From: an uncultured Rhizobiaceae group bacterium
GTDB taxonomy: Bacteria; Pseudomonadota; Alphaproteobacteria; Rhizobiales; Rhizobiaceae
NCBI GenBank assembly: GCA_947501445.1
Contig: CANMVS010000034.1
Coordinates: 1-37,239 of the forward strand
Length of the DNA stretch: 37,239 nt
Reading direction: 5' to 3'
A program made the translations under genes and the position numbers. Under the pieces are notes generated by a model that worked only from the letters and a program-made list of their open reading frames with translations, did no database searches and was not told the origin of the DNA. Below, one piece after another: positions 2,985 to 16,302 of the stretch; position 1 is the first letter of the stretch; each line of letters opens with the position of its first letter.

Positions 2985-3362
2985 ATGTATTGGAACTATC
3001 TCAAGGGACATGGCTGCCGTTTTCTCATCGTCGTATCCAATGGTGCAACCCTGGCTGCGGCCTTGCTGCCGCGTGGCAAGGTCACATTCGATGGAGCCGC
3101 ATTGTTTCGCCCGGTCTTGCGGTCAATTACAGCCAATACGCAGCACGCACACCGGCATTCAGTATTGATTCTTGATGGTTCACACGATACCCGTGGAAAT
3201 CCAGACCACGCCGCCGAGGCAGCATCAGTACTTCTTGCCAATGGTTGCGAAGTAACCCGGCGAACATCTCAGTGCGGGCATGATCCAACCGGAGACGAAT
3301 GCACAATGGTGACGCAATGGTTGCAAAGACCCACCCAGACCGGAGCGAGGCAAACATGGTGA
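2985..3362 (+). pseudogene. truncated alpha/beta-hydrolase (carboxylesterase) C-terminal half
   Basis: These 125 residues match only the second half of a phospholipase/carboxylesterase-type alpha/beta-hydrolase. The nucleophile region reads V-V-S-N-G-A-T-L-A-A-A, followed by F-D-G-A-A-L-F-R-P-V-L, the acid region L-I-L-D-G-S-H-D and the histidine region C-G-H-D. It lines up with residues about 95-200 of the complete hydrolase at 17397 in this same window. The first ~90 residues, including the oxyanion strand H-G-T-G-G, are absent, and I see no remnant of them in the 200 bases upstream. The usual G-x-S is V-V-S here. The frame is open and its stop overlaps the cytochrome start by 7 nt (ATGGTGA), so it was probably once a functional coupled gene. 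It could still be expressed, but a working hydrolase is unlikely. Confidence 0.6.
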
Positions 3363-5002
3363 AGAAACCGATTGTTTTCCTTGCCCTGGGACTCATAATA
3401 CTTGTGGCGCTGCTTATGTGGCTGTTTTCGCAGACACAAACAATATCGAGCGCACGGCCGGCGGTGAAAGACAGCACCGATCAGATATCGATGGGGGCCG
3501 CCGCCTTTGAAGGAGCGGACTTTGGTGGTCTGAGCCTTGCAACCATGCAATCCCACGCTTTACCGTGGCGATTGGTTGCCGCAGCTCTGGTGCTACAGGA
3601 ACAAACGCGCACCCCGCAAACCAGCATTGATCACACGACGCTCAATCGCATATTGGCAGGTTTCGGTTTCCTGCCCTCAGCCGACATTGTCAATCGTCCT
3701 TCCGGCGTTTCGCAAAGCAAAAGGGAAATGCCACTGGGCTTTACCTATGGTGACCTTGCACCCATTGGCGGTACCAAGGTGCGTGTGGCCAACCTTGGCT
3801 GTGCAGCCTGCCATGCGGGGGTTTCCTATTTTGTTGACGGCAGGCCAAGACCCGACAGAGCCTGGCTCGGCATGCCCAATACATCACTGGACCTTGAAGC
3901 CTATACCGCAACAGTGTTCCTGGCCCTCAAAACCAGCCTGACCGATTCACAAAAATTGTTGGCCACGACTGACACGCTTTTTCCGGAAATGGGGTTTCGT
4001 GAACGTCAGTCACTGCGATTTGTGGTTCTGCCACTGGTCAGACAACGCATGGTGCAACTGGGCGACATTGCACGGCCCCTGCCCTTTCCAAATGGTGTGC
4101 CTGGCAGCACAAATGGTGTGGCAGCGCTCAAATACAGCCGGCAACTTCCACTTGCCGGCCATGGTGCGGCAGATGCCGGTATTGTGTCGATCCCCGATCT
4201 TGGTGATCGTATCTGGCGTTCAAGTCTTTTGGTCGATGGAAGCTATGCCATTCCTGGCGGCGCACGGCAAAGTGCCATATCAGCCGCATTGATTGATGAT
4301 GAACATCTGAACGCATTGGCTATGATTACAAGTTTTTTCACGGTCCCGAGCATGGGCGTGGACCCCAATGAAGCCATTACCCACTATGATGACATATCCA
4401 GTATTTTTGCTTTTTTGGATCAGGGTTATCGACCGCAGGTTTTCCCCGGGCCCGTCGACCGGGCAATGGCGGCCGACGGTCGCATGATCTATGCAGACAA
4501 TTGCAGCCAGTGTCACGGCACCTATGACAGCAATATTCAACAACCCCATCTGATGGAGTTTCCCAATTGGCTGGGTGATGTGAAGTCAGACGATCTGAGG
4601 GCCACACTGTTCAGCGACGAACTCGTTGCAAGCTTTGAAAACACGATCTACGCACCGGTGATCTCCGTACAACGCACCGGACAATACGCCGCGCCGCCGC
4701 TCACCGGCGTCTGGGCGTCGGCCCCCTATCTGCACAATGGGTCCGTTCCAACGCTTGCCCAGCTGCTTGATCCTGAAAGCAGACCGCGGAAATTTCAACT
4801 GGGCGGTCATGCCCTGGACTTTGAAAAAGTCGGACTTCGGATCGATGCAAACGGGGCTTATCCGGAAAACTATGTTCCGTTCTCAACGCCTGTCTGGTTT
4901 GATACGCAGGAGCCTGGCAAGAGCAATGGCGGGCACACTTTCGGCGCCGAATTAAGCGACGAGCAGAAACTGCAGCTTATTGAATATCTCAAGCTCTTGT
5001 GA
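3356..5002 (+). CDS. di-haem c-type cytochrome (DHOR/RoxA-like, cytochrome c peroxidase superfamily)
   Basis: This is a 548-residue exported c-type cytochrome. An N-terminal hydrophobic segment (about residues 5-23) acts as a signal peptide or membrane anchor. Two haem c attachment motifs are present: CAACH at residues 149-153 and CSQCH at 383-387. Near residue 458 the segment V-W-A-S-A-P-Y-L-H-N-G-S-V-P-T-L is a hallmark shared by di-haem oxidoreductases and RoxA-type rubber oxygenases. I chose ATG at 3356 because GAGG lies five bases upstream and the hydrophobic segment follows at once. It probably works in the periplasm in electron transfer, peroxide reduction or oxidative cleavage; the sequence does not decide. 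It overlaps the hydrolase fragment by 7 nt. Repeat copy B begins three bases after its stop. Confidence 0.8.
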   Translation: MVKKPIVFLALGLIILVALLMWLFSQTQTISSARPAVKDSTDQISMGAAAFEGADFGGLSLATMQSHALPWRLVAAALVLQEQTRTPQTSIDHTTLNRILAGFGFLPSADIVNRPSGVSQSKREMPLGFTYGDLAPIGGTKVRVANLGCAACHAGVSYFVDGRPRPDRAWLGMPNTSLDLEAYTATVFLALKTSLTDSQKLLATTDTLFPEMGFRERQSLRFVVLPLVRQRMVQLGDIARPLPFPNGVPGSTNGVAALKYSRQLPLAGHGAADAGIVSIPDLGDRIWRSSLLVDGSYAIPGGARQSAISAALIDDEHLNALAMITSFFTVPSMGVDPNEAITHYDDISSIFAFLDQGYRPQVFPGPVDRAMAADGRMIYADNCSQCHGTYDSNIQQPHLMEFPNWLGDVKSDDLRATLFSDELVASFENTIYAPVISVQRTGQYAAPPLTGVWASAPYLHNGSVPTLAQLLDPESRPRKFQLGGHALDFEKVGLRIDANGAYPENYVPFSTPVWFDTQEPGKSNGGHTFGAELSDEQKLQLIEYLKLL

Positions 5003-5549: not shown

Positions 5550-8500
5550 GTGGTAATTAATTTTTTGATCAGGACTTCGCGGACCGGTGCCGATGCATGT
5601 GCATCACACAAGAGTGCTTTGCATTCCAATCACAATCAACATTTGAGAAGACTATTCGCCGGGACTGCGCTGTTCGGCCTGTCCGGCGGCATGTTTGGTG
5701 TAAGCGTGATGGGTGCGCTTTTGCTTGTGCCGAATGACGCCTATGCCGAGTGCAGTATCAGCCCGGGTGAATGGCTGTGCAGCACATACGAAGTTGACGT
5801 CGATAAATTTCCATATCAGGAAATAGCGATTACACCCGACCCTCCTGTTGAAACATTCAATCTTGAGCTTATCGGATCGCAGGTCACCCGCGATACCCCG
5901 CTTGGCGTCAGTATCACCAAGGAAAATACAAGTGGAAACGCATATGCAGATGTAACTGTTACAACTCGGCTTGGTGATGAGTCAGGACTAGCGCCTCTCA
6001 TACTCAACGAGAGCGAGATTGGGCGGGATCATCCGGCGCTGAATGTAGAAGTCGACCTTGGCAACATCACCGTAAATCACAACGTTGGAAAGTTTGTAAG
6101 TTCATACGGCTCAGGAATGAGGCTCGCGACATTTGGTGGAGACATCACGGTCAACAATGGCAGTACGGTGATTGGATCAGGCAGGCATGGGGTCGAAGCC
6201 CATGGCGCTGGACACGTAAGCGTAACCAATAGCAGCTTTAACTCCATGCTAGGTCTTAGTGATGGCGCAAACATCGATGACTCTAATCAGACCAGCTACC
6301 ATAATGATGGTGGTTTAACGGCAGGCCTTACAAAAAATGGCCTGTCCGTGAGCAGAATAGCTGGACGCGACCTTGAGGGTGAGTATGCCGCAAGCGTTAA
6401 AATCAGCAACCGGGATTCAGGTTCAATTACCGGCGGCGAATCTGGAGTCTATTTAGGCAGAATAACGCGAAGCCAACCCGGTGATAGGGACATTGATTTT
6501 TATGCAAATGCAGTTCTCATCGATAATTCCGGCACTGGTGAAGAAGATGATCGTGGCGGCCTGATTGCTGGCTTTGGGTCGAACGGCATCACCGCCGAAA
6601 TCATTGGTGGCAATTTTGTCGTAATGAACCAGAATACACTTGCCTCGACACAATCGCTCAATCGAACGCTGGACGAATTGTTTGTCGGAGAGCGGGGTGA
6701 CGTGGACGGTCTTGAAGGTCTTGGAACCTGGGCGCATGCACAAGGCGGGATCACCGGTATCTTTGGCAATCAGGACGGTATCAGTGTACGGGACATTTTT
6801 CAGCACGATGATGACGGTCAAAATGCTATCGGTGGTGTTGATATCAACAATGATCATGGCCTGATTGTCGGTACCAATGCCAATGGTATCAATTTGCGGG
6901 CAATCGGTGTTGATAAAGGTATACCGGTTCCTGTCCATGATATGAATATCAGCAATGCAGGCGGCTACATTGTCGCCGCCGGTGCCGATGACTTTGTTGT
7001 TCATACCATTAGCCAGGCGCGTCAGCAGGAAGGTTCACGCCACGGGATTAATATCCAATATGCGGCAGGCGACATATATATCAACAATGGTGCTTCATCA
7101 GCCGAAAACACCGCTGGCGGAGGGCTTATTGCCTCGCTCGCCCGTGATCTGGGCGATGTGGATATACCAGGTGCCAAAGCCAATAGTGGCGCCGAAGGTC
7201 ATGGTGTTCATATCGAACAAACGTACGGTAATGTGTTCGTCAACAATTATCGTGGCTTGATATTCAGCGGCAATGGCGACGCGGTTAACGTCGAAGCTGC
7301 TGGCCTGCCTCTTGACATAGAGGAGATGATGAACACGCCCGGAGATGAGATTTATCGATACGGCGCGGCCTATATTGGCTATCACAATGAAGCACTCACG
7401 GATACGCTGCAGGTCATTTCGGATGATGTGCCTTATCTGCCGCCAAACGCAGCAGGAGACGATTACTACATTGCAAAGAATGGCAGTGCCATAGAGGTAA
7501 AAAACACAGCGCATGTCTATGTTAATACCGGTGGCCTGGCGATTGGCTCCGGTCAGCGCATAGACCTTGTTCCTGATTTGCAAATGGCCAATCAAGGTGA
7601 TGGCGGCAATTGGAACGCTGTTACCAGATACGAGAACTTCAGATATGTCAGCCATCAAAATTCCGGCATTCTGGCAAGTCGCAACCTGCCAGGTTTTGGG
7701 ACCGAACTGGGCATTGATAATTTCCTGAGCACAACACCCATTGGCTTTTTTGATGCTGATGAGAATGATACCTACATCAATGTGGACAGCATCTGGTCTG
7801 ATGTCGAAAACATCCGCAACTTTGTGGTCAATATGAACGATGCAGGCGTTGCGCATTTGTACGGTTACGGCAACGCGGCTGACGACATGCTGGTTTACAC
7901 AACAAACAGGAAAATGACTGATCGAATTTCGATGGGGGATGGCCCGCCGCCGGACGACGACGATAGTCCCATCTATATGATGGACAATTCCGGCCTGATG
8001 GTTGGCCGCGTTTCACTCGAAAAAAGTCACATGAGTTCCATAGGCAACAGCGGCAATTGGTTTACACGTGGCTGGAATGAACTTGGCTATCACGGCTTTC
8101 TCCACAATGAAGAGGGCGGCCTGATTCAGACAGCCTTCACAATGGACTATGCCGCTGAGGCGAAAGTGGTGGAGAATGAAATCCAGCAAGAGGATAGTGA
8201 ACAGGTTGTCCTCGTTGATCTGCCTGAAATGAATGATTATGAGCCTGTATGGACCAGATTCAATACCTGGGGCTATCGCAACGATGGCATGCTGAGCATG
8301 ACCGATGGGGAAACCAACGACAAAGTAAGTATCCACTTCCATGACAAGTGGCGGGAGGATATTCCGGCCCTGCAAGACGCGATCTTTGATGTTGAAATGG
8401 GAGACATGGAGTATCCATATTCCCCGGGTTGGTCAGGCAATGGATATCTGGGTGTCGATGTTGATTTCTATGAGGGCAGATCCGATGTTCTCTGGCTTCT

Positions 8501-9893
8501 GGCTGAACGCCGATACGTGGAAGACAACATTGAGAACGTGTCCGTCTCGGATGTGCAAATTCCCGAGATCGAAGCCATGCCATTTTATATCGGTGGCTCT
8601 ACCGGGATCATCTCCAATACGATCAACACCATGCCGGGTAATTTTGACGGCGGGATTACCGTTGTTGAATACGGTGAGGGCGGAATGATTGAAAATGGTT
8701 GCTCTGGAAACTGTAAAGCTGGTGATGCATTTTACATCTCTGAATACTCGGAGGGTTATGCTGAAGTTGATGGCATTGGTTTCGTAACCGGTGAAGACAG
8801 CAACTGGCTTTCCTGGTATCTGGTCCATGACGAAGAGGATCGTCGCTTTGAATACCAGGCAGGCGCATCGCCCGGTGGTGCACAATTGCCCGGTCTGCAA
8901 ACGCAGATGCAGAATGTCTGGTATGAGACACAAGGGGTCGTGTCCGATCATATCCGTGCAGACCGGTTTGGTGGTAGCGGACTTTCCAGCACATCCAATG
9001 CTGACCTGGTCGACATAATTCCTGAAGCACCGCAGGCAGATGCCGAGCGCTACAACAGCAAGGGTATCTGGGCGAAAATTCAGGGGTCGTGGACAAATCG
9101 TGATACGGCAGTCAATACCGTTATCGGTGGTGGAACAGCCAGTTTCGATACCAGCTATGATCAGGATATCTTCAGTATCCTTGGCGGTTTCGATATGCTG
9201 CTTGGCCAAAACAGTCCGGTGCGGGTTGGTGTGTTTGGTGGTTACATCAATTCATCGGCAGATTTTAATTCCTGGGCCACATCCAGTGATGCGGACGGCG
9301 GGACAGTTGGTGCCTATGTCGACTATACCAAAGACAACTTCTATGTTGATGCAACCTTCAAGGCCGACTTCCTCAACATTGACTATTCAACCAATATCAC
9401 CGGTGTGAATGCGCAGACAGGAAGCGCTGATGTCACCAACTATGGTGTTGAAGCCAATGCCGGATATCGCTTTAACGCAACGCATGGGTTCATTGAGCCC
9501 ATCATCTCGGCAACCTATGTGCACACACAAATTGACAACTTCGCGCTTGGTGGGGTCTCCGCCGGGTTCTCGAATGCCGATAGCATTCGTGGTGGTGTTG
9601 GCGCCAGGGTTGGTACGAACAAGCGGTTCGCCAATGGTATGCAGGGTGAGTTCACACTGCTTGGTAAAGTCTGGAATGAGTTCGAAAATGCCAACCAGGT
9701 GACACTGGTTGATACGCTCGGCAACACGGCATCCTTTACCGACGGTATCAATGGTGTGTTTGGTGAAGTGGAAGGCGGCATTAACATATTCAATGCAGCC
9801 AAGAACGCTTCTGCCTTTGTATCGGGTGGTGCCGAGTTCAACAGCGACTTCACAACCTATAATGCCAAGGCCGGCTTCCGCTGGATGTGGTAA
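5550..9893 (+). CDS. autotransporter with beta-helix-like passenger and C-terminal beta-barrel
   Basis: This is a type Va secretion autotransporter of 1,447 aa. The start is GTG at 5550, with a G-rich ribosome-binding site five bases upstream. The N-terminus is long: about 31 polar residues rich in His, Ser and Asn precede a basic stretch and a hydrophobic core, with likely signal peptidase cleavage after A-Y-A (residue 66). The passenger (about 67-1,160) is Gly-, Asn- and Asp-rich. It repeats a loose unit of the form N-N-x-G-G-L-I-x-G-x-x-x-N-G-I, as expected for beta-helix rungs. From about residue 1,165 (K-G-I-W-A-K-I-Q-G-S-W) to the end is the 12-strand autotransporter barrel, closing with F-R-W-M-W and its terminal aromatic residue. 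No protease or lipase motif is evident, so adhesion or surface interaction is likely but unproven. It stands alone, facing the nitroreductase gene. Confidence 0.9.
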   Translation: MVINFLIRTSRTGADACASHKSALHSNHNQHLRRLFAGTALFGLSGGMFGVSVMGALLLVPNDAYAECSISPGEWLCSTYEVDVDKFPYQEIAITPDPPVETFNLELIGSQVTRDTPLGVSITKENTSGNAYADVTVTTRLGDESGLAPLILNESEIGRDHPALNVEVDLGNITVNHNVGKFVSSYGSGMRLATFGGDITVNNGSTVIGSGRHGVEAHGAGHVSVTNSSFNSMLGLSDGANIDDSNQTSYHNDGGLTAGLTKNGLSVSRIAGRDLEGEYAASVKISNRDSGSITGGESGVYLGRITRSQPGDRDIDFYANAVLIDNSGTGEEDDRGGLIAGFGSNGITAEIIGGNFVVMNQNTLASTQSLNRTLDELFVGERGDVDGLEGLGTWAHAQGGITGIFGNQDGISVRDIFQHDDDGQNAIGGVDINNDHGLIVGTNANGINLRAIGVDKGIPVPVHDMNISNAGGYIVAAGADDFVVHTISQARQQEGSRHGINIQYAAGDIYINNGASSAENTAGGGLIASLARDLGDVDIPGAKANSGAEGHGVHIEQTYGNVFVNNYRGLIFSGNGDAVNVEAAGLPLDIEEMMNTPGDEIYRYGAAYIGYHNEALTDTLQVISDDVPYLPPNAAGDDYYIAKNGSAIEVKNTAHVYVNTGGLAIGSGQRIDLVPDLQMANQGDGGNWNAVTRYENFRYVSHQNSGILASRNLPGFGTELGIDNFLSTTPIGFFDADENDTYINVDSIWSDVENIRNFVVNMNDAGVAHLYGYGNAADDMLVYTTNRKMTDRISMGDGPPPDDDDSPIYMMDNSGLMVGRVSLEKSHMSSIGNSGNWFTRGWNELGYHGFLHNEEGGLIQTAFTMDYAAEAKVVENEIQQEDSEQVVLVDLPEMNDYEPVWTRFNTWGYRNDGMLSMTDGETNDKVSIHFHDKWREDIPALQDAIFDVEMGDMEYPYSPGWSGNGYLGVDVDFYEGRSDVLWLLAERRYVEDNIENVSVSDVQIPEIEAMPFYIGGSTGIISNTINTMPGNFDGGITVVEYGEGGMIENGCSGNCKAGDAFYISEYSEGYAEVDGIGFVTGEDSNWLSWYLVHDEEDRRFEYQAGASPGGAQLPGLQTQMQNVWYETQGVVSDHIRADRFGGSGLSSTSNADLVDIIPEAPQADAERYNSKGIWAKIQGSWTNRDTAVNTVIGGGTASFDTSYDQDIFSILGGFDMLLGQNSPVRVGVFGGYINSSADFNSWATSSDADGGTVGAYVDYTKDNFYVDATFKADFLNIDYSTNITGVNAQTGSADVTNYGVEANAGYRFNATHGFIEPIISATYVHTQIDNFALGGVSAGFSNADSIRGGVGARVGTNKRFANGMQGEFTLLGKVWNEFENANQVTLVDTLGNTASFTDGINGVFGEVEGGINIFNAAKNASAFVSGGAEFNSDFTTYNAKAGFRWMW

Positions 9894-10076: not shown

Positions 10077-11060
10077 TCAAACCAGAATTTCCCCTAATGG
10101 GCGGCGTGCCCGTATCGCTGTTTGTGCTCCAGCAGGGCGTCGCCCGATGCGAAAAGCGGAAACAATGCGTCGATCCGGTCCGATACCAGCCCGCTCGGCA
10201 AGCAACTTTGCTGCATCGCCATCATCGGCCAGAGCGGCCAGAACGGCGGCAGCAAACCCGGCCGCTTCAATGCGCAGCCAGAGGCGGTAAAAATGCCTGC
10301 CGCTTTCAAAGGCGGTTTCAGTTACCGGGCGATGGAAAACTACCAGTCCGGCGGCAGATGTCGTCTTTTTTGTTTCTGCCAATAACTTCGGTGCAAGTGA
10401 CAGACGGTCAAGCAGACCGAAGGCCGGCCCCATGATGATGCCGGCAGCAAAGGCTTCGGCTGCATTGAGATGCATGGCTGATGCGTTCAATCCATCAAGG
10501 GCCCACCGTTCATGCCTGTGCGACAGTCGCATCCAGGAAAGCAATTCAGAGCGAAAGGCACCATTTCGCATGAAACCAAAACTTGCCGCATCCACAAGAG
10601 GCGCAAGCGCGTGCACGTCATCCGCATCACAAAGAACGCTGGTATCATCAGTGACAAGCGATCGGGCATTTTGCCGATCCTTCTGTGATGGCGTTTCAAA
10701 AGTACCGCGCCAGGATTGCCGTTTTGAAACATAATCGGCAAGTGGGTCTGTGCCAACGGCTGCCGCGAAACCATAGCGGGCAATCGGTCGCAAAGTTGTC
10801 CCTGCCTGCGGCAGGGAGCTGTTCTCCTCAACTACAGACATCCCATTTTGAGACGCCGCCAGCGCCAGGCCTTCAACAGAAGCGCCAAGGCTCATTGCCG
10901 CATCGCTGCCCTGCGGGTCGGCCGCATCCAGATGCGTTGAAAGATCGTCAAACAGCACAAGACTTTCATCTTCAATACGCCAGCGTGCAGGCTGTACATT
11001 ATGAACGCTTGGTGCAAGGGATGCCTGTTTGATCAGTGACAGGATTTCATCGTGTGTCAC
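10077..11060 (-). CDS. Acg-type nitroreductase family FMN-binding oxidoreductase
   Basis: This is a 327-aa flavoprotein-like member of the nitroreductase superfamily, of the tandem-domain Acg type. The N-terminus I-K-Q-A-S-L-A-P-S-V-H-N-V-Q-P-A-R-W is the FMN phosphate-binding helix and loop of the family. A second conserved segment, Y-V-S-K-R-Q-S-W-R-G-T-F near residue 150, marks the second domain. It is the last gene of a five-gene coupled minus-strand operon: its GTG start overlaps the preceding acetyltransferase stop (GTGA, 4 nt). In the best-known E1/nitroreductase partnerships (azole formation in modified peptides) the flavoprotein oxidises a product of the adenylating enzyme; whether that holds here is inference. 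The role of Acg proteins themselves is poorly known, and some members are thought to sequester FMN rather than catalyse. Confidence 0.8.
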   Translation of the reverse strand: MTHDEILSLIKQASLAPSVHNVQPARWRIEDESLVLFDDLSTHLDAADPQGSDAAMSLGASVEGLALAASQNGMSVVEENSSLPQAGTTLRPIARYGFAAAVGTDPLADYVSKRQSWRGTFETPSQKDRQNARSLVTDDTSVLCDADDVHALAPLVDAASFGFMRNGAFRSELLSWMRLSHRHERWALDGLNASAMHLNAAEAFAAGIIMGPAFGLLDRLSLAPKLLAETKKTTSAAGLVVFHRPVTETAFESGRHFYRLWLRIEAAGFAAAVLAALADDGDAAKLLAERAGIGPDRRIVSAFRIGRRPAGAQTAIRARRPLGEILV

Positions 11061-12184
11061 GTCAACGCCTTTCGGAAAAGATGAAGATGCTGCAACGGCC
11101 TGCCACCCAGGCGCTCCATCTGTCTGAGACTGGCCACATTCTCATCGGCGATCCAGGTTACGCCCAATTTTTCATATCCAGCGTTCTTCAGGCAAGCAAT
11201 GGTTCGTGCCAGCATGGTGCCCATTATGCCACGTCCGTGCTGCTGCTGAATGACTGAATAAAATATGATCACCGCGCGTTTGCGGTTTAGGCGGTAGCGC
11301 AAAAAATGATAGGGTGTCAGCAACCCAATGCGTGATCGTGTTGCTTTCAAGAATCCATTCAGATCAGGAATGCAAATCACCACACCAACCGGCTGGCCCT
11401 CATGGTGCAGCACAGATGACAGCCGGGGATCAAGGATTGTCATCATCTCGCCTGCCTGAAACTGGAACTCCTGCGCCGTAAGCGGCACAAACATCGGGTT
11501 TTCAGCAAAGCCGTCATTCAGAACAAGCCGTCCTTCTTCCATACGCGCGGCAAAGTCCTTCGATTTTATTTCTGCAAATGTGTAGCCCGCATTGTCTGCC
11601 AGTTTCCTTGTCTGAGCTGCTGTATTTGTCAGATCCACCTCAAAAGTCGACATCGGAAAAAAGCGCTCAAATCCGTTTTGTTCCAGCAATGCCGGAATAT
11701 GCGGTGGATTGACGATCATGTCGGTGTAACCGACGGTCTCAAACCCACCGGTTTGCACGCCCATTTGCTGCATTGCCGTCAGATTGAAATTGCCGGCAAG
11801 CTCATTGAATTTTTTCTCTTTTGCCCAGTCCTGAGCCGCTGACAGCAGCAAATCAGCAGCCTGCGGATCATCGGCACAATCGAAGAAACCAAAGCTGGCC
11901 CTATTGGTATCATGCGCTCGATTGGAGGCATGATGTACATGAACAACAATCCGGCCAATGGGCCGCCCATCGCGCATGGCAGTGAAATAGGTAAAATCGG
12001 CATTGCTGGTGAACAGCGGATTTTGCTGCGCATCCAGCATCCGCCTGAGATCACTTTTCATTGGTGATACATAGGCTTGGGGCGATACATAGGCTTGAGG
12101 CGATACGTAAGCCTGGCCATCATCGTAGGCATTAAATGGCGCCTTGAAGAATGCTTCAAAGTTGCGTTCCTCAAGGGTAATCAT
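11057..12184 (-). CDS. GNAT family N-acyltransferase with N-terminal hexapeptide repeat
   Basis: This is a 375-aa acyltransferase. The C-terminal GNAT domain shows the acyl-CoA pyrophosphate loop as Q-Q-Q-H-G-R-G-I-M-G-T-M-L, followed by L-G-V-T-W-I-A-D-E-N-V-A-S-L-R-Q-M-E-R-L-G-G, the usual end of the fold. The N-terminal half (about 40-200) looks like a further, degenerate GNAT-like domain. Residues about 24-41 are three tandem copies of Q-A-Y-V-S-P, encoded by an 18-bp DNA repeat. ATG at 12184 overlaps the upstream membrane-protein stop (ATGA), and the 3' end overlaps the nitroreductase by 4 nt, so it is translated as part of the five-gene unit. The acceptor is unknown; an amino-acid-derived metabolite or peptide handled by the adjacent E1-like protein is a reasonable guess. 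Confidence 0.75.
   Translation of the reverse strand: MITLEERNFEAFFKAPFNAYDDGQAYVSPQAYVSPQAYVSPMKSDLRRMLDAQQNPLFTSNADFTYFTAMRDGRPIGRIVVHVHHASNRAHDTNRASFGFFDCADDPQAADLLLSAAQDWAKEKKFNELAGNFNLTAMQQMGVQTGGFETVGYTDMIVNPPHIPALLEQNGFERFFPMSTFEVDLTNTAAQTRKLADNAGYTFAEIKSKDFAARMEEGRLVLNDGFAENPMFVPLTAQEFQFQAGEMMTILDPRLSSVLHHEGQPVGVVICIPDLNGFLKATRSRIGLLTPYHFLRYRLNRKRAVIIFYSVIQQQHGRGIMGTMLARTIACLKNAGYEKLGVTWIADENVASLRQMERLGGRPLQHLHLFRKALT
12063..12116 (-). repeat. 18-bp in-frame tandem repeat, three units
   Basis: Plus-strand units are ggtgatacataggcttgg (12063-12080), ggcgatacataggcttga (12081-12098) and ggcgatacgtaagcctgg (12099-12116). On the minus strand each encodes Q-A-Y-V-S-P within the acetyltransferase. 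Units 1 and 2 differ at two positions; unit 3, the 5'-most in the gene, is more diverged. The multiple-of-three length keeps the frame whatever the copy number. Confidence 0.9.
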
Positions 12185-13377
12185 GAGACAGCCCTTTGCT
12201 GTGAAAGCAGATATGCAACACGCTGCACAGCGCGCAATTCAATTTCCGCACCGGGCGATGCTGCCAATGTCGGCATATTAAGCGCGACGACAACAAACGG
12301 GTTTTCGGAAACGAGCATGACGTGCGTCGCATCATATTTTTCGAAAAACCAACCAAGCTGTTCATTGTGGCTGTGTGCGTTCTTCATATCCAACTCTGAG
12401 CGCTTGCGAATGGGGTCATGGGTAAAACAGGCACGAAAGGATGCATCAAAATCCCCAAGCGCGGCCGTATCGAGAATGAGCGCGCCCTCGACCAGGGCAT
12501 GCCGTTGAAGCCCTTGCAAAAAGACGGCTGGCGAATCCGTCGTGGACCGGGCGATGTAGCGCAAAAGACTGTCGCGTTCCGCATCTCTCTGGGTTGTTTT
12601 CGCCTCATTGTAGATGGAGGCAAGTATACTGAATGCCATTATGATGGCGGTTGCCTGTATCGCGGTGCGGATATCAAACCCCGCCAGCCATGCCACCGAC
12701 ACACCGGCAGCCACGGCACTGACGAATAGCATCAGGAACGAGCGGGCAATCTCCTGATGGCTCAGGTTGCCGCGCCCCAGACTGACCGCCAGCCAGCAAA
12801 GAAACAGAACCGCAATCCCCGACAACCGCACCGGTGTATCGAAGGGATCAGTGCGGTAGTCGCTTATCGCAAAGGGCAAAATCAGGACAAGGGACAATCC
12901 AATTCTGCCAACGGTTCTGTTTTGCGCAACGGAAAGGCTGTCCCGGTCCCGTGTCAGTACCAACACACCGATGGACATAAACATGAAACTTTGCAGCAGC
13001 AGTAAAGCGTAAATCCTTGCCGGGTCCGCAAACTGCGGGGAAAGAAATGCCAGAACAAAAAACACCAGCGCCCCACCCGCTGCGATCAACTTCAAAAAAC
13101 GGGGCGCATGGCGCAACAACAGACCTTCAGACAGGATCAAGGCAGCAAGCGGGATCATGCCCGCCGCGATGATGGTAATCGTATCAAAAAGGCTGATACC
13201 TGATACCCACCACAAAAGCCTTGCAAGCATCATTGTACAGATGACATCGATACCGAACAAAAAACGCCTGTCGATTGAAGACCCGGCCTCGCCGCGTTTG
13301 ATTGTTCCACGCAAGATCAACAGGCCTGCCACAGCCGTCAGGGAAACCAGTGTATCGGCGACAATGGCCTGCTGCAT
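12181..13377 (-). CDS. polytopic inner-membrane protein with cytoplasmic C-terminal domain, function unknown
   Basis: I do not recognise a named family for this 398-aa protein. Roughly nine hydrophobic segments are visible between residues 4 and 255, for example L-S-L-T-A-V-A-G-L-L-I-L and F-L-M-L-F-V-S-A-V-A-A-G-V. They are followed by a soluble tail of about 140 residues. The tail starts with a helix (D-S-L-L-R-Y-I-A) and contains G-A-L-I-L-D and V-A-L-N-M-P-T-L before a final helix, a layout reminiscent of a GAF-like sensory domain; this resemblance is by eye only. Its ATG shares one base with the stop of the E1-like gene (TAATG), and its 3' end overlaps the next gene by 4 nt. It may localise the pathway at the membrane, sense its product or transport it. 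Confidence 0.7.
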   Translation of the reverse strand: MQQAIVADTLVSLTAVAGLLILRGTIKRGEAGSSIDRRFLFGIDVICTMMLARLLWWVSGISLFDTITIIAAGMIPLAALILSEGLLLRHAPRFLKLIAAGGALVFFVLAFLSPQFADPARIYALLLLQSFMFMSIGVLVLTRDRDSLSVAQNRTVGRIGLSLVLILPFAISDYRTDPFDTPVRLSGIAVLFLCWLAVSLGRGNLSHQEIARSFLMLFVSAVAAGVSVAWLAGFDIRTAIQATAIIMAFSILASIYNEAKTTQRDAERDSLLRYIARSTTDSPAVFLQGLQRHALVEGALILDTAALGDFDASFRACFTHDPIRKRSELDMKNAHSHNEQLGWFFEKYDATHVMLVSENPFVVVALNMPTLAASPGAEIELRAVQRVAYLLSQQRAVS

Positions 13378-14258
13378 TATTGCCCCGCCATCTTTTTACC
13401 CAGGAACCGGCGAACAATGGGTCTGAGTACGGCCGCAATCAGCCCATTTCTGGGGCGCTCGACGCGGCCGGCATAGGGATTGAAAAACCAGCCCCGGCAG
13501 TCAGCACCAGGCTTTCGACCCAAAATGGCATTGATGACCTCATAGGCCATCAGATTGCCTGTCGTCAGAACCATGGGCGCGAATGACATGCGGCTGCGGG
13601 TACCTGCTGCCACTTCACCCGCCAGATCCAGATCAATGTAGTGGCGTGAGGTTGAATGCAGCACAACATATTCAGCTTCACGCAGAAATGCCTCATTGCG
13701 CTGTTCATCACTCAATGCATTCCATGGTGTCGAAAGGGTTGGATAACCAAGGCGATACTCAGGCGCATTGTCGCCGGGCTGGGTTACAAATATCGATGGT
13801 AACGGCGATGCATAGGCATCAATCACCGCCTTGCCATGTTGTTTTGCTGTTCGATATAACAGCAAAGACGCGCCAAGGTCATCCGTGCCATTCACCACAA
13901 TGGCGCTATTTCCCACCGCCCGCTCCACATGCTCAGGCCAGTCCTCACCATGGATCGTGATATTCATTTCAGGATTGATTGTCAGGCAAATTTTACCCGT
14001 TGCCTCGGCTTTGTGCTGATCTAGCGTATGTTGAAACGCGAATGCCTGACGATTAAGATTTGAAACTTCAAACTCATCTATGTCAGCCAATATCAGATTG
14101 CCGACGCCAGCCCGTGCCAGTGCAAATACGCAAGCCCCGCCCATACCGCCGGTGCCGCAAATAAATACCGTAGCGTTGCGCAGCGTATTTTGCTCATCAG
14201 TCGTCACAAACCCGATATTGCGGGTTGTAAATTCGGCGTAGGAAAATGCGGTACTCAT
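13377..14258 (-). CDS. ThiF/MoeB/HesA-type (E1-like) adenylyltransferase
   Basis: This is a 293-aa E1-like enzyme predicted to adenylate a carboxylate. I chose ATG at 14258 because it overlaps the preceding stop as ATGA. The nucleotide-binding core is visible: G-T-G-G-M-G-G at 35-41, D59 (L-A-D-I-D), N69-R70-Q71, K83 and the T-D-D acid pair at 126-127, which match the ATP-binding and catalytic positions of MoeB/ThiF. Unlike MoeB and ThiF it has no CxxC pairs, so the structural zinc site is absent. Cysteines are few (in F-I-C-G, G-A-C-V, K-I-C-L and A-D-C-R), and no obvious thioester cysteine can be assigned. No ubiquitin-like/ThiS-like partner is encoded nearby, so the substrate may be a small molecule or peptide. 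It is the second gene of the five-gene unit. Confidence 0.85.
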   Translation of the reverse strand: MSTAFSYAEFTTRNIGFVTTDEQNTLRNATVFICGTGGMGGACVFALARAGVGNLILADIDEFEVSNLNRQAFAFQHTLDQHKAEATGKICLTINPEMNITIHGEDWPEHVERAVGNSAIVVNGTDDLGASLLLYRTAKQHGKAVIDAYASPLPSIFVTQPGDNAPEYRLGYPTLSTPWNALSDEQRNEAFLREAEYVVLHSTSRHYIDLDLAGEVAAGTRSRMSFAPMVLTTGNLMAYEVINAILGRKPGADCRGWFFNPYAGRVERPRNGLIAAVLRPIVRRFLGKKMAGQ

Positions 14259-15205
14259 TTTGTTCTTGGCCTTAATATGTTCCACTGCTTTGAGCTGTCG
14301 AACCAATGGACAATGGGCAGGATGATGCGCTGCAGGCTAGCAAAACCGGCGGCAATGAACAGGCCACCCAAAGATGCGGTCGGCACGCTGCTTTGAAGGT
14401 ATTTTCGCATGGCCTGCAAATCAATCCTGCCAAGCTGCAGGACATCATCACCACGGCCATAATCCAGTTGTTCCCGGCAAAAATCATTATAGATTTCATT
14501 GCGATGCTTGGGCGCCACCTCAAAAGTCTTCTTCAGGTCATCCGAGCCGCCCGTATAGGCATTGGTAATGACAAACCGATCTTCATCAAACTCCGCATCT
14601 GCACCGACGCCAAAAACATGGCGATGATTGCTGACAATCTCACGGGCGATGAGAAGATGTCTGAGCGAGCGGTTCTGCGCTTTTTGCGGTGCCGGATAAA
14701 CTTGCGAGAATGTCTCACTGACCATGCCGATGATGGCCGGTACCTGCGTTACATTTGAAATCCACATTGGTCGAAGCTGATTGCGCAGAAACAGCAATAT
14801 GCAGGTCAGACCGTAAAGTACCCAGGACAGGCCACGTGACTGTTCATTCGGGTCAACCATCACCAACCCAAGATGCAGAACCTGCACGGGCTGGTCGCCA
14901 AGTTCCATATCCATGATTGCCAGTGCATTGAAGGCAATGGGTCTGCCATCTTCCTTCCGCCGCACAAGGGTAATGACTGTATTTTTCAAACGTTCCGGAT
15001 CGCCGGAAAACACCCCGTAGGTCAGTCCACCTCTGGGCAAGGTGTGCGCAGCGACCTCCACGAGATCTGCGCTAAGCGCTATCAGTTCGTCACCTGACAT
15101 CCAAAGGCCGGGGCGCTCGACAATACGCGTTTCCACGCCTTTGACTGCGTTCACATAAATATCCATCTGTCTGCGCAGCATCATCTTGGCAAATATGTTG
15201 AGCAA
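14255..15205 (-). CDS. GNAT-like acyltransferase, first gene of the ThiF/GNAT/nitroreductase operon
   Basis: This protein of up to 316 aa has a GNAT-like core. The segment V-L-H-L-G-L-V-M-V-D-P-N-E-Q-S-R-G-L-S-W-V-L-Y-G (about residues 122-146) resembles strand 4 and the acyl-CoA loop of GNAT enzymes, with Q-S-R-G-L-S replacing the stricter Q/R-x-x-G-x-G/A. The C-terminal ~40 residues contain a hydrophobic segment (L-G-G-L-F-I-A-A-G-F-A) that could be a membrane or lipid contact. The longest frame starts with TTG at 15205; ATGs at 15184, 15181 and 15166 are alternatives, and none has a clear ribosome-binding site. The TGA overlaps the E1-like start by 4 nt. The specific donor and acceptor are unknown. 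Confidence 0.6.
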   Translation of the reverse strand: MLNIFAKMMLRRQMDIYVNAVKGVETRIVERPGLWMSGDELIALSADLVEVAAHTLPRGGLTYGVFSGDPERLKNTVITLVRRKEDGRPIAFNALAIMDMELGDQPVQVLHLGLVMVDPNEQSRGLSWVLYGLTCILLFLRNQLRPMWISNVTQVPAIIGMVSETFSQVYPAPQKAQNRSLRHLLIAREIVSNHRHVFGVGADAEFDEDRFVITNAYTGGSDDLKKTFEVAPKHRNEIYNDFCREQLDYGRGDDVLQLGRIDLQAMRKYLQSSVPTASLGGLFIAAGFASLQRIILPIVHWFDSSKQWNILRPRTK

Positions 15206-15323: not shown

Positions 15324-16244
15324 CTATTGCAGCGTAAAGGCATCCTTTCGATCTGATACGGCACCTTCTATGTAATCTGTCAGTGTCTGTACCTTTGCCG
15401 GCAGGATATCGTATGGTGGGTAATAGGCCGTCAGCCAGATAGGCGGTGCCGACCAATCATCCAGCACGGTCTGCAACGCACCACCGGCCAGATGTTTCGC
15501 CACAATGAACATTGGCAGGAGTGCGATGCCGCAGTCCCGCAGCGCCATCTCTGTCATCATCTCACCATTGTTACACAAAAACGGGTGATGCGCTCTGACC
15601 GTGCGCGATATTCCAGACCGGGAATTTTCAAGTTGAAGTTCATTGCCACCGGAAAAATGCGAATAGCCGAGACAATCATGGTCCAGTAGCTGGGCAGGTT
15701 CCAATGGCATCCCTTTACGCTCCAGATAGACAGGCGTTGCCACCAATACCCTTGGAACCAGACAGATTTTGCGCCAGATCGTGGACTTGTCACCTGGCGG
15801 TCCAGATACCCGCAATGCCATATCGTAATCCTCGGAAAGAATATCGATAAACCGGTCAGACAAATCCAGTTTCAACGCGATACCCGGATGCATCATCGTA
15901 AATTGCGCAATCACATCCGGCAAAAAACGCAGACCCAATGAAAGGGGCGCACTGACACGCAGGGTTCCGGTCAGGCTGTTTTGTTGTTCGCGCGCACTTT
16001 CATTGGTGCGATCCAGATCCCGTGTAATAGCCAGGACACGTTCAAGGTAATTTTCACCGGCCAGCGTCAGACTCACGCTTCTGGTGGTACGAACCAGAAG
16101 CTGTACACCCAAGTCCGCCTCCAGGTCACCCACATGGCGTGTTGCCACACTGCGCGAGATATTGAGTTGGCGTGCGGCGGCAGCAAAACTGCGCGCTGAT
16201 GCCACTTCAATGAACACTCTGATGCGTTCGATTTGACCAACCAC
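15324..16244 (-). CDS. LysR family transcriptional regulator
   Basis: This is a 306-aa LysR-type regulator. The winged helix-turn-helix covers residues about 5-63 (R-I-R-V-F-I-E-V-A-S-A-R-S-F-A-A-A-A-R-Q and R-H-V-G-D-L-E-A-D-L-G), and the effector domain covers about 90-295. The frame is open to 16286, but that start would lie inside the palindrome at 16284-16302. GTG at 16244 has AAGGA eight bases upstream, which gives the usual short N-terminus. It is divergent from the VOC dioxygenase operon, which it most likely controls in response to a quinone or aromatic compound. It is also 118 bases upstream of the E1/GNAT operon on the same strand, so partial read-through into that operon is possible. 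Confidence 0.88.
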   Translation of the reverse strand: MVGQIERIRVFIEVASARSFAAAARQLNISRSVATRHVGDLEADLGVQLLVRTTRSVSLTLAGENYLERVLAITRDLDRTNESAREQQNSLTGTLRVSAPLSLGLRFLPDVIAQFTMMHPGIALKLDLSDRFIDILSEDYDMALRVSGPPGDKSTIWRKICLVPRVLVATPVYLERKGMPLEPAQLLDHDCLGYSHFSGGNELQLENSRSGISRTVRAHHPFLCNNGEMMTEMALRDCGIALLPMFIVAKHLAGGALQTVLDDWSAPPIWLTAYYPPYDILPAKVQTLTDYIEGAVSDRKDAFTLQ

Positions 16245-16283
16245 AGGCACAATCCTTTTGAAGGAACGTTGCTGAATTAGGCA

Positions 16284-16302
16284 CAATAATCACATATTAT
16301 TG
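16284..16302. promoter_or_regulatory. 19-bp palindrome, probable LysR-type operator
   Basis: CAATAAT-CACAT-ATTATTG has perfect 7-bp arms, sits 40 bases before the LysR start and 124 bases before the dioxygenase start. LysR recognition sites are typically short interrupted AT-rich palindromes of this size in the divergent region. The link to this regulator is inference from position. Confidence 0.55.

What the first reader, a model, noticed from the sequence alone, without database searches (positions are those of the whole stretch)
10077..15205. Five-gene translationally coupled operon: GNAT-like, E1/ThiF-like, membrane protein, GNAT, Acg nitroreductase
All four junctions are overlaps: ATGA at 14255-14258, TAATG at 13375-13379, ATGA at 12181-12184 and GTGA at 11057-11060. 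Such tight coupling suggests one pathway or complex with fixed stoichiometry. The enzyme classes (carboxylate adenylation, acyl transfer twice, flavin redox) are those used to make or modify amino-acid- or peptide-derived compounds. No ubiquitin-like protein, precursor peptide, NRPS or known cofactor-biosynthesis partner is visible. E1 plus nitroreductase pairing is known from azole-modified peptide pathways, but the other standard parts (YcaO, peptide) are absent here. I cannot name a described system that has this content.
Basis: partly seen in the sequence, partly recalled or inferred. Interest (0 to 1): 0.78.

Follow-up and report, generated by a model that had tools for sequence, protein, structure and literature searches.

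The report
Alphaproteobacterial variant of acyl-oxazolone lipid operon

Summary
In detail: five minus-strand genes with four overlapping junctions at the stated coordinates. The unit is conserved: 54 related loci, mostly Alphaproteobacteria by record title, keep one order and strand; 178 of 180 scored junctions are 11 bp or less. [quoted passage not shown] PMC10404671, PMC12856293). The operon's E1 groups with E1s of that side rather than with MoeB/ThiF (branch 96/93; moderate support), keeps the adenylation residues and has no CxxC pair. It is a variant: the first GNAT is not detectably FeeM/NasY-like; gene 3 is an unnamed membrane protein of about nine helices; gene 4 is a full-length YghO/CerS (ceramide N-acyltransferase) relative. 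The neighbour is a convergent RoxA-like di-haem cytochrome in 23 of 54 loci or an acyl-ACP-synthetase fusion in 14 of 54, never both. Best reading: a membrane-associated pathway to N-acyl oxazolones or their dehydroamino-acid products. No product is known; the reactions, and the roles of genes 3 and 4, are inferred.

The parts
14255..15205 (-). Gene 1 (GNAT1): divergent GNAT-fold protein, 316 aa; proposed N-acyl amino acid synthase. VDPNEQSRGLS stretch resembling the CoA pyrophosphate loop (motif recalled); hydrophobic C-terminal helices
   Evidence: present, in a few loci shortened, in 52 of 52 related loci where its place is on the contig
13377..14258 (-). Gene 2 (E1): ThiF-family adenylating enzyme, 293 aa; proposed oxazolone cyclase. 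GxGGMGG, D59, N67, R70, K83 and D126 invariant and D61 nearly invariant in 32 aligned sequences; no CxxC in 55 of 55
12181..13377 (-). Gene 3 (MEM): integral membrane protein of about nine helices with a C-terminal cytosolic domain; no named family
   Evidence: (pLDDT 90.9); present in 53 of 54 related loci
11057..12184 (-). Gene 4 (GNAT2): YghO/CerS-like N-acyltransferase, 375 aa; present in 42 of 53 assessable related loci
   Evidence: YghO/CC_1154 as ceramide N-acyltransferase: PMC9386255, PMC11324152
10077..11060 (-). Gene 5 (FDO): Acg-like flavin-dependent oxidase, 327 aa; proposed C-alpha/C-beta desaturase; present in 51 of 52 assessable related loci
   Evidence: (Acg structure 2YMV, E=3.5e-20)
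3299..5002 (+). Associated gene: RoxA-like di-haem cytochrome c, 567 aa, convergent to the operon; two CXXCH and PYLHNGSVP; recurrent direct neighbour in relatives
5550..9893 (+). Autotransporter gene lying between the cytochrome and the operon; not part of the conserved unit

Best explanation
The operon encodes a membrane-associated pathway of the acyl-oxazolone kind. Gene 1 (GNAT1) transfers a fatty acyl group from acyl-ACP or acyl-CoA to the amino group of an amino acid. Gene 2 (ThiF-like) adenylates the free carboxylate of the N-acyl amino acid with ATP, so that the amide oxygen closes an oxazolone (azlactone) ring. Gene 5 (Acg-like flavin oxidase) desaturates the C-alpha/C-beta bond with O2. 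Opening of the ring would give N-acyl dehydroamino acids. Gene 4, a YghO/CerS relative, makes a second or alternative acyl transfer; gene 3 anchors, exports or senses the product. Where they are neighbours, an Aas-type fusion may supply acyl-ACP and a RoxA-like di-haem protein may oxidise the lipid outside the cytosol. Shown here: gene order, coupling, conservation, families and folds, E1 grouping and conserved adenylation residues. Inferred: all reactions, substrates and products, and the roles of genes 3 and 4.
For: Published sets of the same three activities make acyl-oxazolones: TyzA/TyzB/TyzC, and TrzA with the ThiF-FDO fusion TrzS. NCBIfam models of ThiF-nitroreductase proteins match both window proteins, below cut-off: Rv1355c family against gene 5 (E=2.3e-14) and gene 2 (E=1.3e-10), PRK14851 against gene 5 (1.1e-10) and gene 2 (4.4e-19). 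The window E1 shares the F-Y...RNIG-x-[ILV]T...EQ..LR start with the E1 of an NAS-ThiF-FDO cluster (L091; 36% over 147 aa); 52 of 55 operon E1s carry the RNIG-type motif, E. coli MoeB, ThiF and TcdA do not. Seventeen operon E1s, four Tyz-like E1s and a Rhodococcus E1 fall on one side of a 96/93 branch, MoeB, ThiF, TcdA and eight other ThiF-like rows on the other. No CxxC in 55 of 55 operon E1s, two pairs each in E. coli MoeB and ThiF, which speaks against sulphur-carrier chemistry. The smallest architecture, L065, is GNAT1-E1-FDO. Pairwise-distance correlations between the five proteins are 0.68-0.92 over 37 complete loci (shared ancestry of the hosts alone also raises these). Lipid context: in six loci an acyl-[ACP]-phospholipid O-acyltransferase fusion (1750.9 bits, cut-off 1349, for L056) ends -1 to +5 nt from gene 1, in eight others it is the convergent neighbour. 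Gene 4 aligns end to end with YghO.
Against: No metabolite is known. GNAT1 shows no sequence relation to FeeM/NasY synthases (hhalign probability 0.4 of 100; no FeeM match among 32 members at E<=0.1; PF21926 finds three other genes in the genome but not this one), so its substrate is a guess. Gene 5 scores better with the Acg/Rv3131 family than with the Rv1355c family (138.9 against 52.6 bits) and only E=2e-4 with the FDO of L091, so it may not be the FDO type of the known pathways. Of the four 'Tyz-like' reference E1s, picked by their match to NF011425, L091 has all three genes, L089 has a FeeM-type neighbour, and for L090 and L092 no such partners were identified. Absence of CxxC is not decisive: E. 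coli TcdA lacks it too and L090 has one. The AU test only fails to reject {operon, Tyz-like} as one clade (p=0.40), and TcdA is a very long branch. For stieleriacines, thalassotalic and kyonggic acids no oxazolone was observed and the ThiF role is called enigmatic (PMC12479983). L034 has GNAT1-E1-MEM without genes 4 and 5. Genes 3 and 4 have no counterpart in the published sets.
Confidence: 0.58

Rival explanations
1. The E1-activated N-acyl amino acid is not cyclised but handed to a second amine or alcohol acceptor, for example through GNAT2, giving a conjugate lipid (lipopeptide-, capnine- or ceramide-like), with the flavin oxidase acting on that product.
For: GNAT2 is of the YghO/CerS family, which is thought to N-acylate sphingoid bases; other E1-like enzymes such as MccB couple carboxylates to nitrogen (recalled); no oxazolone has been seen here.
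Against: GNAT2 is missing in 11 of 53 assessable loci, while in 10 of these 11 the set GNAT1-E1-FDO stays (the exception is L034), so the core chemistry need not use it; the E1-FDO pairs characterised biochemically make oxazolones.
Confidence: 0.19
2. The product is a signal and gene 3 is its receptor: a membrane sensor with a cytosolic C-terminal domain, so that the operon is a self-contained signalling system comparable to an AHL synthase and receptor pair.
For: Gene 3 has conserved charged residues in its cytosolic loops and an N-out, C-in topology by the positive-inside rule; 1 of 35 members matches 7TMR-DISM_7TM weakly (E=0.0012); N-acyl oxazolones are likened to cell-cell signals in the discussion of PMC12856293.
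Confidence: 0.1
3. A cofactor, thiolation or protein-conjugation pathway (MoeB/ThiF or ubiquitin-like) with an accessory flavin enzyme.
For: ThiF fold family; the E1 scores 65-92 bits with MoeB and ThiF models, all below cut-off.
Against: No CxxC pairs and no invariant cysteine, no further gene for a small carrier protein between the tightly packed operon genes, two acyltransferase-like proteins and lipid-linked neighbours, E1 tree.
Confidence: 0.05

Closest known systems
TyzACB (Mycobacterium tuberculosis Rv2336, Rv2338c, Rv2337c), acyl-tyrazolone pathway (PMC10404671, parts 1-2 of 6 seen)
   Same: Separate, clustered genes for an acyltransferase, a ThiF-like cyclase and a single-domain Acg-like flavin oxidase
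   Different: TyzA models like FeeM/BjaI; TyzC is of subgroup FDO-A; no YghO/CerS-like gene; an mmpL9 transporter gene lies nearby, its role only suggested; actinobacterial
TrzAS (mycobacteria, Rhodococcus) and OxzAB (Pseudoalteromonas rubra) (PMC12856293, PMC10404671)
   Same: Same three activities, E1 and flavin oxidase functionally paired
   Different: ThiF and oxidase are fused there and separate here; genes 3 and 4 are extra. OxzAB is known to me only through these two papers; their sequences were not fetched
[quoted passage not shown] L091 has this make-up
   Same: NAS, ThiF and nitroreductase genes together, operon-like in some; the E1 of L091 groups with the operon E1s
   Different: GNAT1 is not a detectable NasY/FeeM; genes 3 and 4 are extra; the oxidase is only remotely similar
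YghO/CerS (CC_1154) ceramide N-acyltransferase (PMC9386255, PMC11324152, passages)
   Same: Full-length relative of gene 4
   Different: About 23% identity; the other four operon genes are not ceramide genes

Membership tests
Acyl-oxazolone biosynthesis (Tyz/Trz/Oxz) | Clustered N-acyltransferase, ThiF-like cyclase and flavin-dependent oxidase | tested here: met
   Gene content and order in the window and 54 loci, by family and fold; that GNAT1 is an N-acyltransferase of amino acids is inferred
Acyl-oxazolone biosynthesis (Tyz/Trz/Oxz) | Cyclase belongs to the TyzB/OxzB side of the ThiF family | tested here: inconclusive
   Branch 96/93 with Tyz-like rows and AU p=0.40, but few reference families and long branches; published TyzB, OxzB and TrzS sequences were not fetched
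Acyl-oxazolone biosynthesis (Tyz/Trz/Oxz) | Acyltransferase of the FeeM/AHL-synthase type | tested here: inconclusive
   No relation found by sequence or profile; the model is a GNAT fold, which does not settle it
Acyl-oxazolone biosynthesis (Tyz/Trz/Oxz) | Oxidase of subgroup FDO-A | tested here: inconclusive
   138.9 bits with Acg/Rv3131 against 52.6 with Rv1355c family; no tree of the subgroups was built
Acyl-oxazolone biosynthesis (Tyz/Trz/Oxz) | Product is an N-acyl oxazolone | not testable with these tools
   Needs enzymes or metabolite extracts
MoeB/ThiF sulphur-carrier activating enzymes | Two CxxC pairs as in E. coli MoeB and ThiF | tested here: not met
   0 of 55 operon E1s have any CxxC
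YghO/CerS N-acyltransferases | Full-length homology | tested here: met
   hhalign probability 99.9, E=4e-34, 358 columns against E. coli YghO
YghO/CerS N-acyltransferases | Acts on a sphingoid base, with spt, acpR and cerR at hand | not tested
   Substrate cannot be tested here; spt, acpR and cerR were not searched for in the genome
Azole-modified peptide pathways | YcaO cyclodehydratase and precursor peptide | not tested
   No YcaO match among the 16 window proteins scanned with Pfam (14 window proteins outside these were not scanned); no search for short peptide genes

The most novel reading that the evidence does not exclude
The operon is a self-contained lipid-signal or envelope-lipid system: a new GNAT type makes an N-acyl amino acid, the E1/oxidase pair turns it into a reactive oxazolone at the membrane, a CerS-like enzyme or the nine-helix protein captures the activated ring (acylating an amine, exporting or sensing it), and a RoxA-like di-haem oxygenase outside the cytosol cleaves or oxygenates a double bond of the product.
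Probability: 0.15. Interest if true: 0.8.

Novelty: new variant of a known kind. Interest (0 to 1): 0.55.

Why it matters
Acyl-oxazolones were tied to genes only recently, and PMC12856293 calls their physiological role a major unresolved question. This operon would extend the gene logic to Alphaproteobacteria, several in genera that are easy to handle (Caulobacter, Brevundimonas, Bosea, rhizobia), with a different acyltransferase, a conserved membrane protein that may be a missing transport or sensing step, and links to ceramide-type acyl transfer and di-haem oxygenases. In the two annotated records opened, genes 1, 3 and 5 are called hypothetical.

Tried and rejected
Azole-peptide reading: set aside because the described E1-oxidase pairs that match best act on N-acyl amino acids; YcaO and peptides were not searched for specifically. 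Sulphur-carrier or ubiquitin-like reading: no CxxC, no partner seen. GNAT1 as FeeM/NasY: not detectable; FeeM is not among the rows shown by Foldseek or VIA-align, which excludes nothing. GNAT1 as NodA-like: 2 of 32 members, best E=0.017, not followed. MEM: PDB sequence search (best E=0.04, chance-like), Pfam, Foldseek (no match at E<=0.001) and VIA gave only generic seven-helix receptors; the C-terminal domain was not tested alone. LysR gene 15324-16286 as operon regulator: no relative of it, of the autotransporter or of the glyoxalase gene in the loci of the two same-genus genomes at E<=1e-3; not tested in the other loci. MEM in 240 genomes drawn from the class: found in 1, the window's own. 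The first E1 tree was spoiled by rows read on the wrong strand and was rebuilt; the second tree, without TcdA, holds only three groups and cannot test which two are nearest. Of the AAS hits, L023, L028 and L066 (513-595 aa) were dropped as other AMP-binding enzymes; of them only L023 was identified (malonyl-CoA synthase). In the scan (200 genomes, 194 with a match, none over cut-off), only the four best places were opened. L025 and L028 are the contigs of G002 and G003 (L021, L022), so these two genomes are counted once, within the 54. Recurrent neighbour clusters other than the cytochrome and the fusion were not identified; several are antisense ORFs. Papers: searches for YghO with ceramide synthase and for 'bacterial ceramide synthase' found none; searches listed no paper that names this five-gene operon, within the held open-access library; the published sequence-network figures and supplements, which might include this E1 group, could not be seen. 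Seen of the papers: PMC10404671 parts 1-2 of 6 and passages; PMC12856293 abstract, sections 4, 7, 8 and passages; PMC12479983 parts 1-2 of 5; PMC9386255, PMC11324152 and PMC4496055 passages only.
Full report
Observation. On the minus strand they run GNAT1 (14255-15205), E1 (13377-14258), MEM (12181-13377), GNAT2 (11057-12184), FDO (10077-11060); the junctions ATGA, TAATG, ATGA and GTGA are in the sequence. The start of GNAT1 (TTG 15205, or an ATG about 20 nt later) is not certain.

Conservation. Of seven other genomes of the genus, two (G002, G003) carry a close E1, and both have the five genes in the same order, at 52-75% identity. Their flanks differ from the window's, except that G003 too has a RoxA-like gene convergent to the operon; the two share some upstream genes with each other. 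A scan of one genome per species gave 54 loci (found by two peptide patterns of the E1, so a lower bound; L025 and L028 are G002 and G003). In 54 of 54 the genes found lie in one order and on one strand. Where the place lies on the contig, GNAT1 is present in 52 of 52, MEM in 53 of 54, GNAT2 in 42 of 53, FDO in 51 of 52. Leaving out five cut or broken loci (L031, L037, L055, L073, L074), 153 of 180 junctions overlap and 178 of 180 are 11 bp or less (starts chosen by script). L065 has GNAT1-E1-FDO alone; L034 has GNAT1-E1-MEM alone. On a tree of GNAT1+E1 (51 rows) presence of GNAT2 needs 5 changes, one of which rests on L051, whose contig ends there, and the neighbour type (cytochrome, fusion, neither) needs 13, so the extras come and go. 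The operon is rare: gene 3 was found in 1 of 240 genomes drawn from the class, the window's own.

What the parts are. E1: ThiF family, best NCBIfam model PRK08223 at 110.6 bits, below its cut-off of 266. In 32 aligned sequences GxGGMGG, D59, N67, R70, K83 and D126 are invariant and D61 nearly so. In TrzS an Asp of the adenylation motif (D217) was shown to be needed (PMC12856293); that D126 is its counterpart is my inference. No CxxC in 55 of 55; among references MoeB and ThiF have two, L090 one, TcdA and the others none. Seventeen operon E1s, four Tyz-like E1s (L089-L092) and the E1 of a Rhodococcus plasmid with an N-acyltransferase gene nearby (L095) fall on one side of a 96/93 branch, and MoeB, ThiF, TcdA and eight other rows on the other (95/91). 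TcdA is a very long branch, so this is moderate support. The Tyz-like rows are the four best matches to NF011425 in 200 genomes; L091 stands with a FeeM-type synthase and an FDO, L089 with a FeeM-type gene, and for L090 and L092 no partners were identified.

FDO: relative of Acg (2YMV, E=3.5e-20); an APS.HN.QP.RW stretch is nearly invariant. Each of the 8 genomes of the genus searched holds at least one Acg-type gene over the family cut-off elsewhere; the operon copies in G000, G002 and G003 score below it.

GNAT2: full-length YghO relative. YghO and Caulobacter CC_1154 are listed as the presumed ceramide N-acyltransferase, aca/cerS (passages of PMC9386255 and PMC11324152). In Roseomonas a distant relative (about 26% identity) sits with two LptF/LptG permease genes and a nucleotidyltransferase gene, a neighbourhood like the CC_1156-CC_1153 region described in PMC11324152.

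MEM: model pLDDT 90.9 with nine long hydrophobic helices; mean K+R in alternate loops 2.9, 3.4, 2.2, 1.7 against 0.1, 0.7, 1.3, 0.3 over 35 sequences, giving N-out, C-in. No named family was found.

Neighbours. A RoxA-like di-haem cytochrome stands convergent to the operon in 23 of 54 loci, in 22 of them -14 to +24 nt from its end (51 of 54 loci have 800 bp or more downstream). Of the 23, 22 have at least two CXXCH and 18 the PYxHNGSVP-type motif. The window's copy is at 3299-5002, parted from the operon by a 1447-aa autotransporter gene. It has two CXXCH and PYLHNGSVP, like PYFHNGSVP of the P. aeruginosa oleate oxygenases PA2077 and PA2078, relatives of RoxA (PMC4496055, passages). Against an oxygenase reading: the only NCBIfam model it passes is di-heme-cytochrome C peroxidase (155.6 bits, cut-off 150), the RoxA, RoxB and RoxC models match over about 40 residues far below cut-off, and the RoxA structure 4B2N matches over 78 residues only. 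An Aas-type fusion (MFS, PlsC, AMP ligase) is the neighbour in 14 of 54: six upstream, -1 to +5 nt from GNAT1, and eight convergent downstream at 33-436 nt. No locus has both. Two annotated plasmid records show both arrangements, with genes 1, 3 and 5 called hypothetical.

Mechanism. By analogy with TyzACB and TrzAS, GNAT1 makes an N-acyl amino acid, E1 cyclises it with ATP, FDO desaturates it with O2. In TrzS cyclisation comes first; in TyzACB either order works. Ring opening would give N-acyl dehydroamino acids, as known from strains that carry NasY-ThiF-nitroreductase genes, where no oxazolone was seen and the ThiF step is open (PMC12479983). Which amino acid and chain is unknown. That GNAT1 rather than GNAT2 is the main acyltransferase follows from its presence in all assessable loci; genes 3 and 4 are assigned by inference only.

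Verdict. A real, conserved operon and a new variant of a recently described kind. It is filed as 'works like' the oxazolone pathway, not as a proven member: acyltransferase type and oxidase subgroup could not be matched, and no product is known.

Noticed in passing
window 12062-12112, minus strand: Gene 4 holds three in-frame copies of AYVSP(Q), 12 residues more than in the two same-genus relatives: it looks like a tandem duplication.
   Followed up: partly
window 5550-9893: A 1447-aa autotransporter lies between the operon and the RoxA-like gene; no relative of it was found among flanking ORFs of the 54 loci at E<=1e-10, so it looks like an insertion.
   Followed up: partly
window 3299-5002 and L022:13407-15125: RoxA-like di-haem cytochromes recur next to this operon; their substrate is unknown.
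   Followed up: partly
L031, L037, L074: Shortened or split genes: GNAT1 and GNAT2 in L031, MEM and FDO in L037, E1 in L074; decaying copies or assembly errors.
   Followed up: no
L095:1846-4729: Rhodococcus plasmid with an N-acyltransferase gene and a ThiF gene parted by an IS256 transposase gene.
   Followed up: no
G000:C20:34142-34615: FeeM-type N-acyl amino acid synthase match elsewhere in the window's genome.
   Followed up: no
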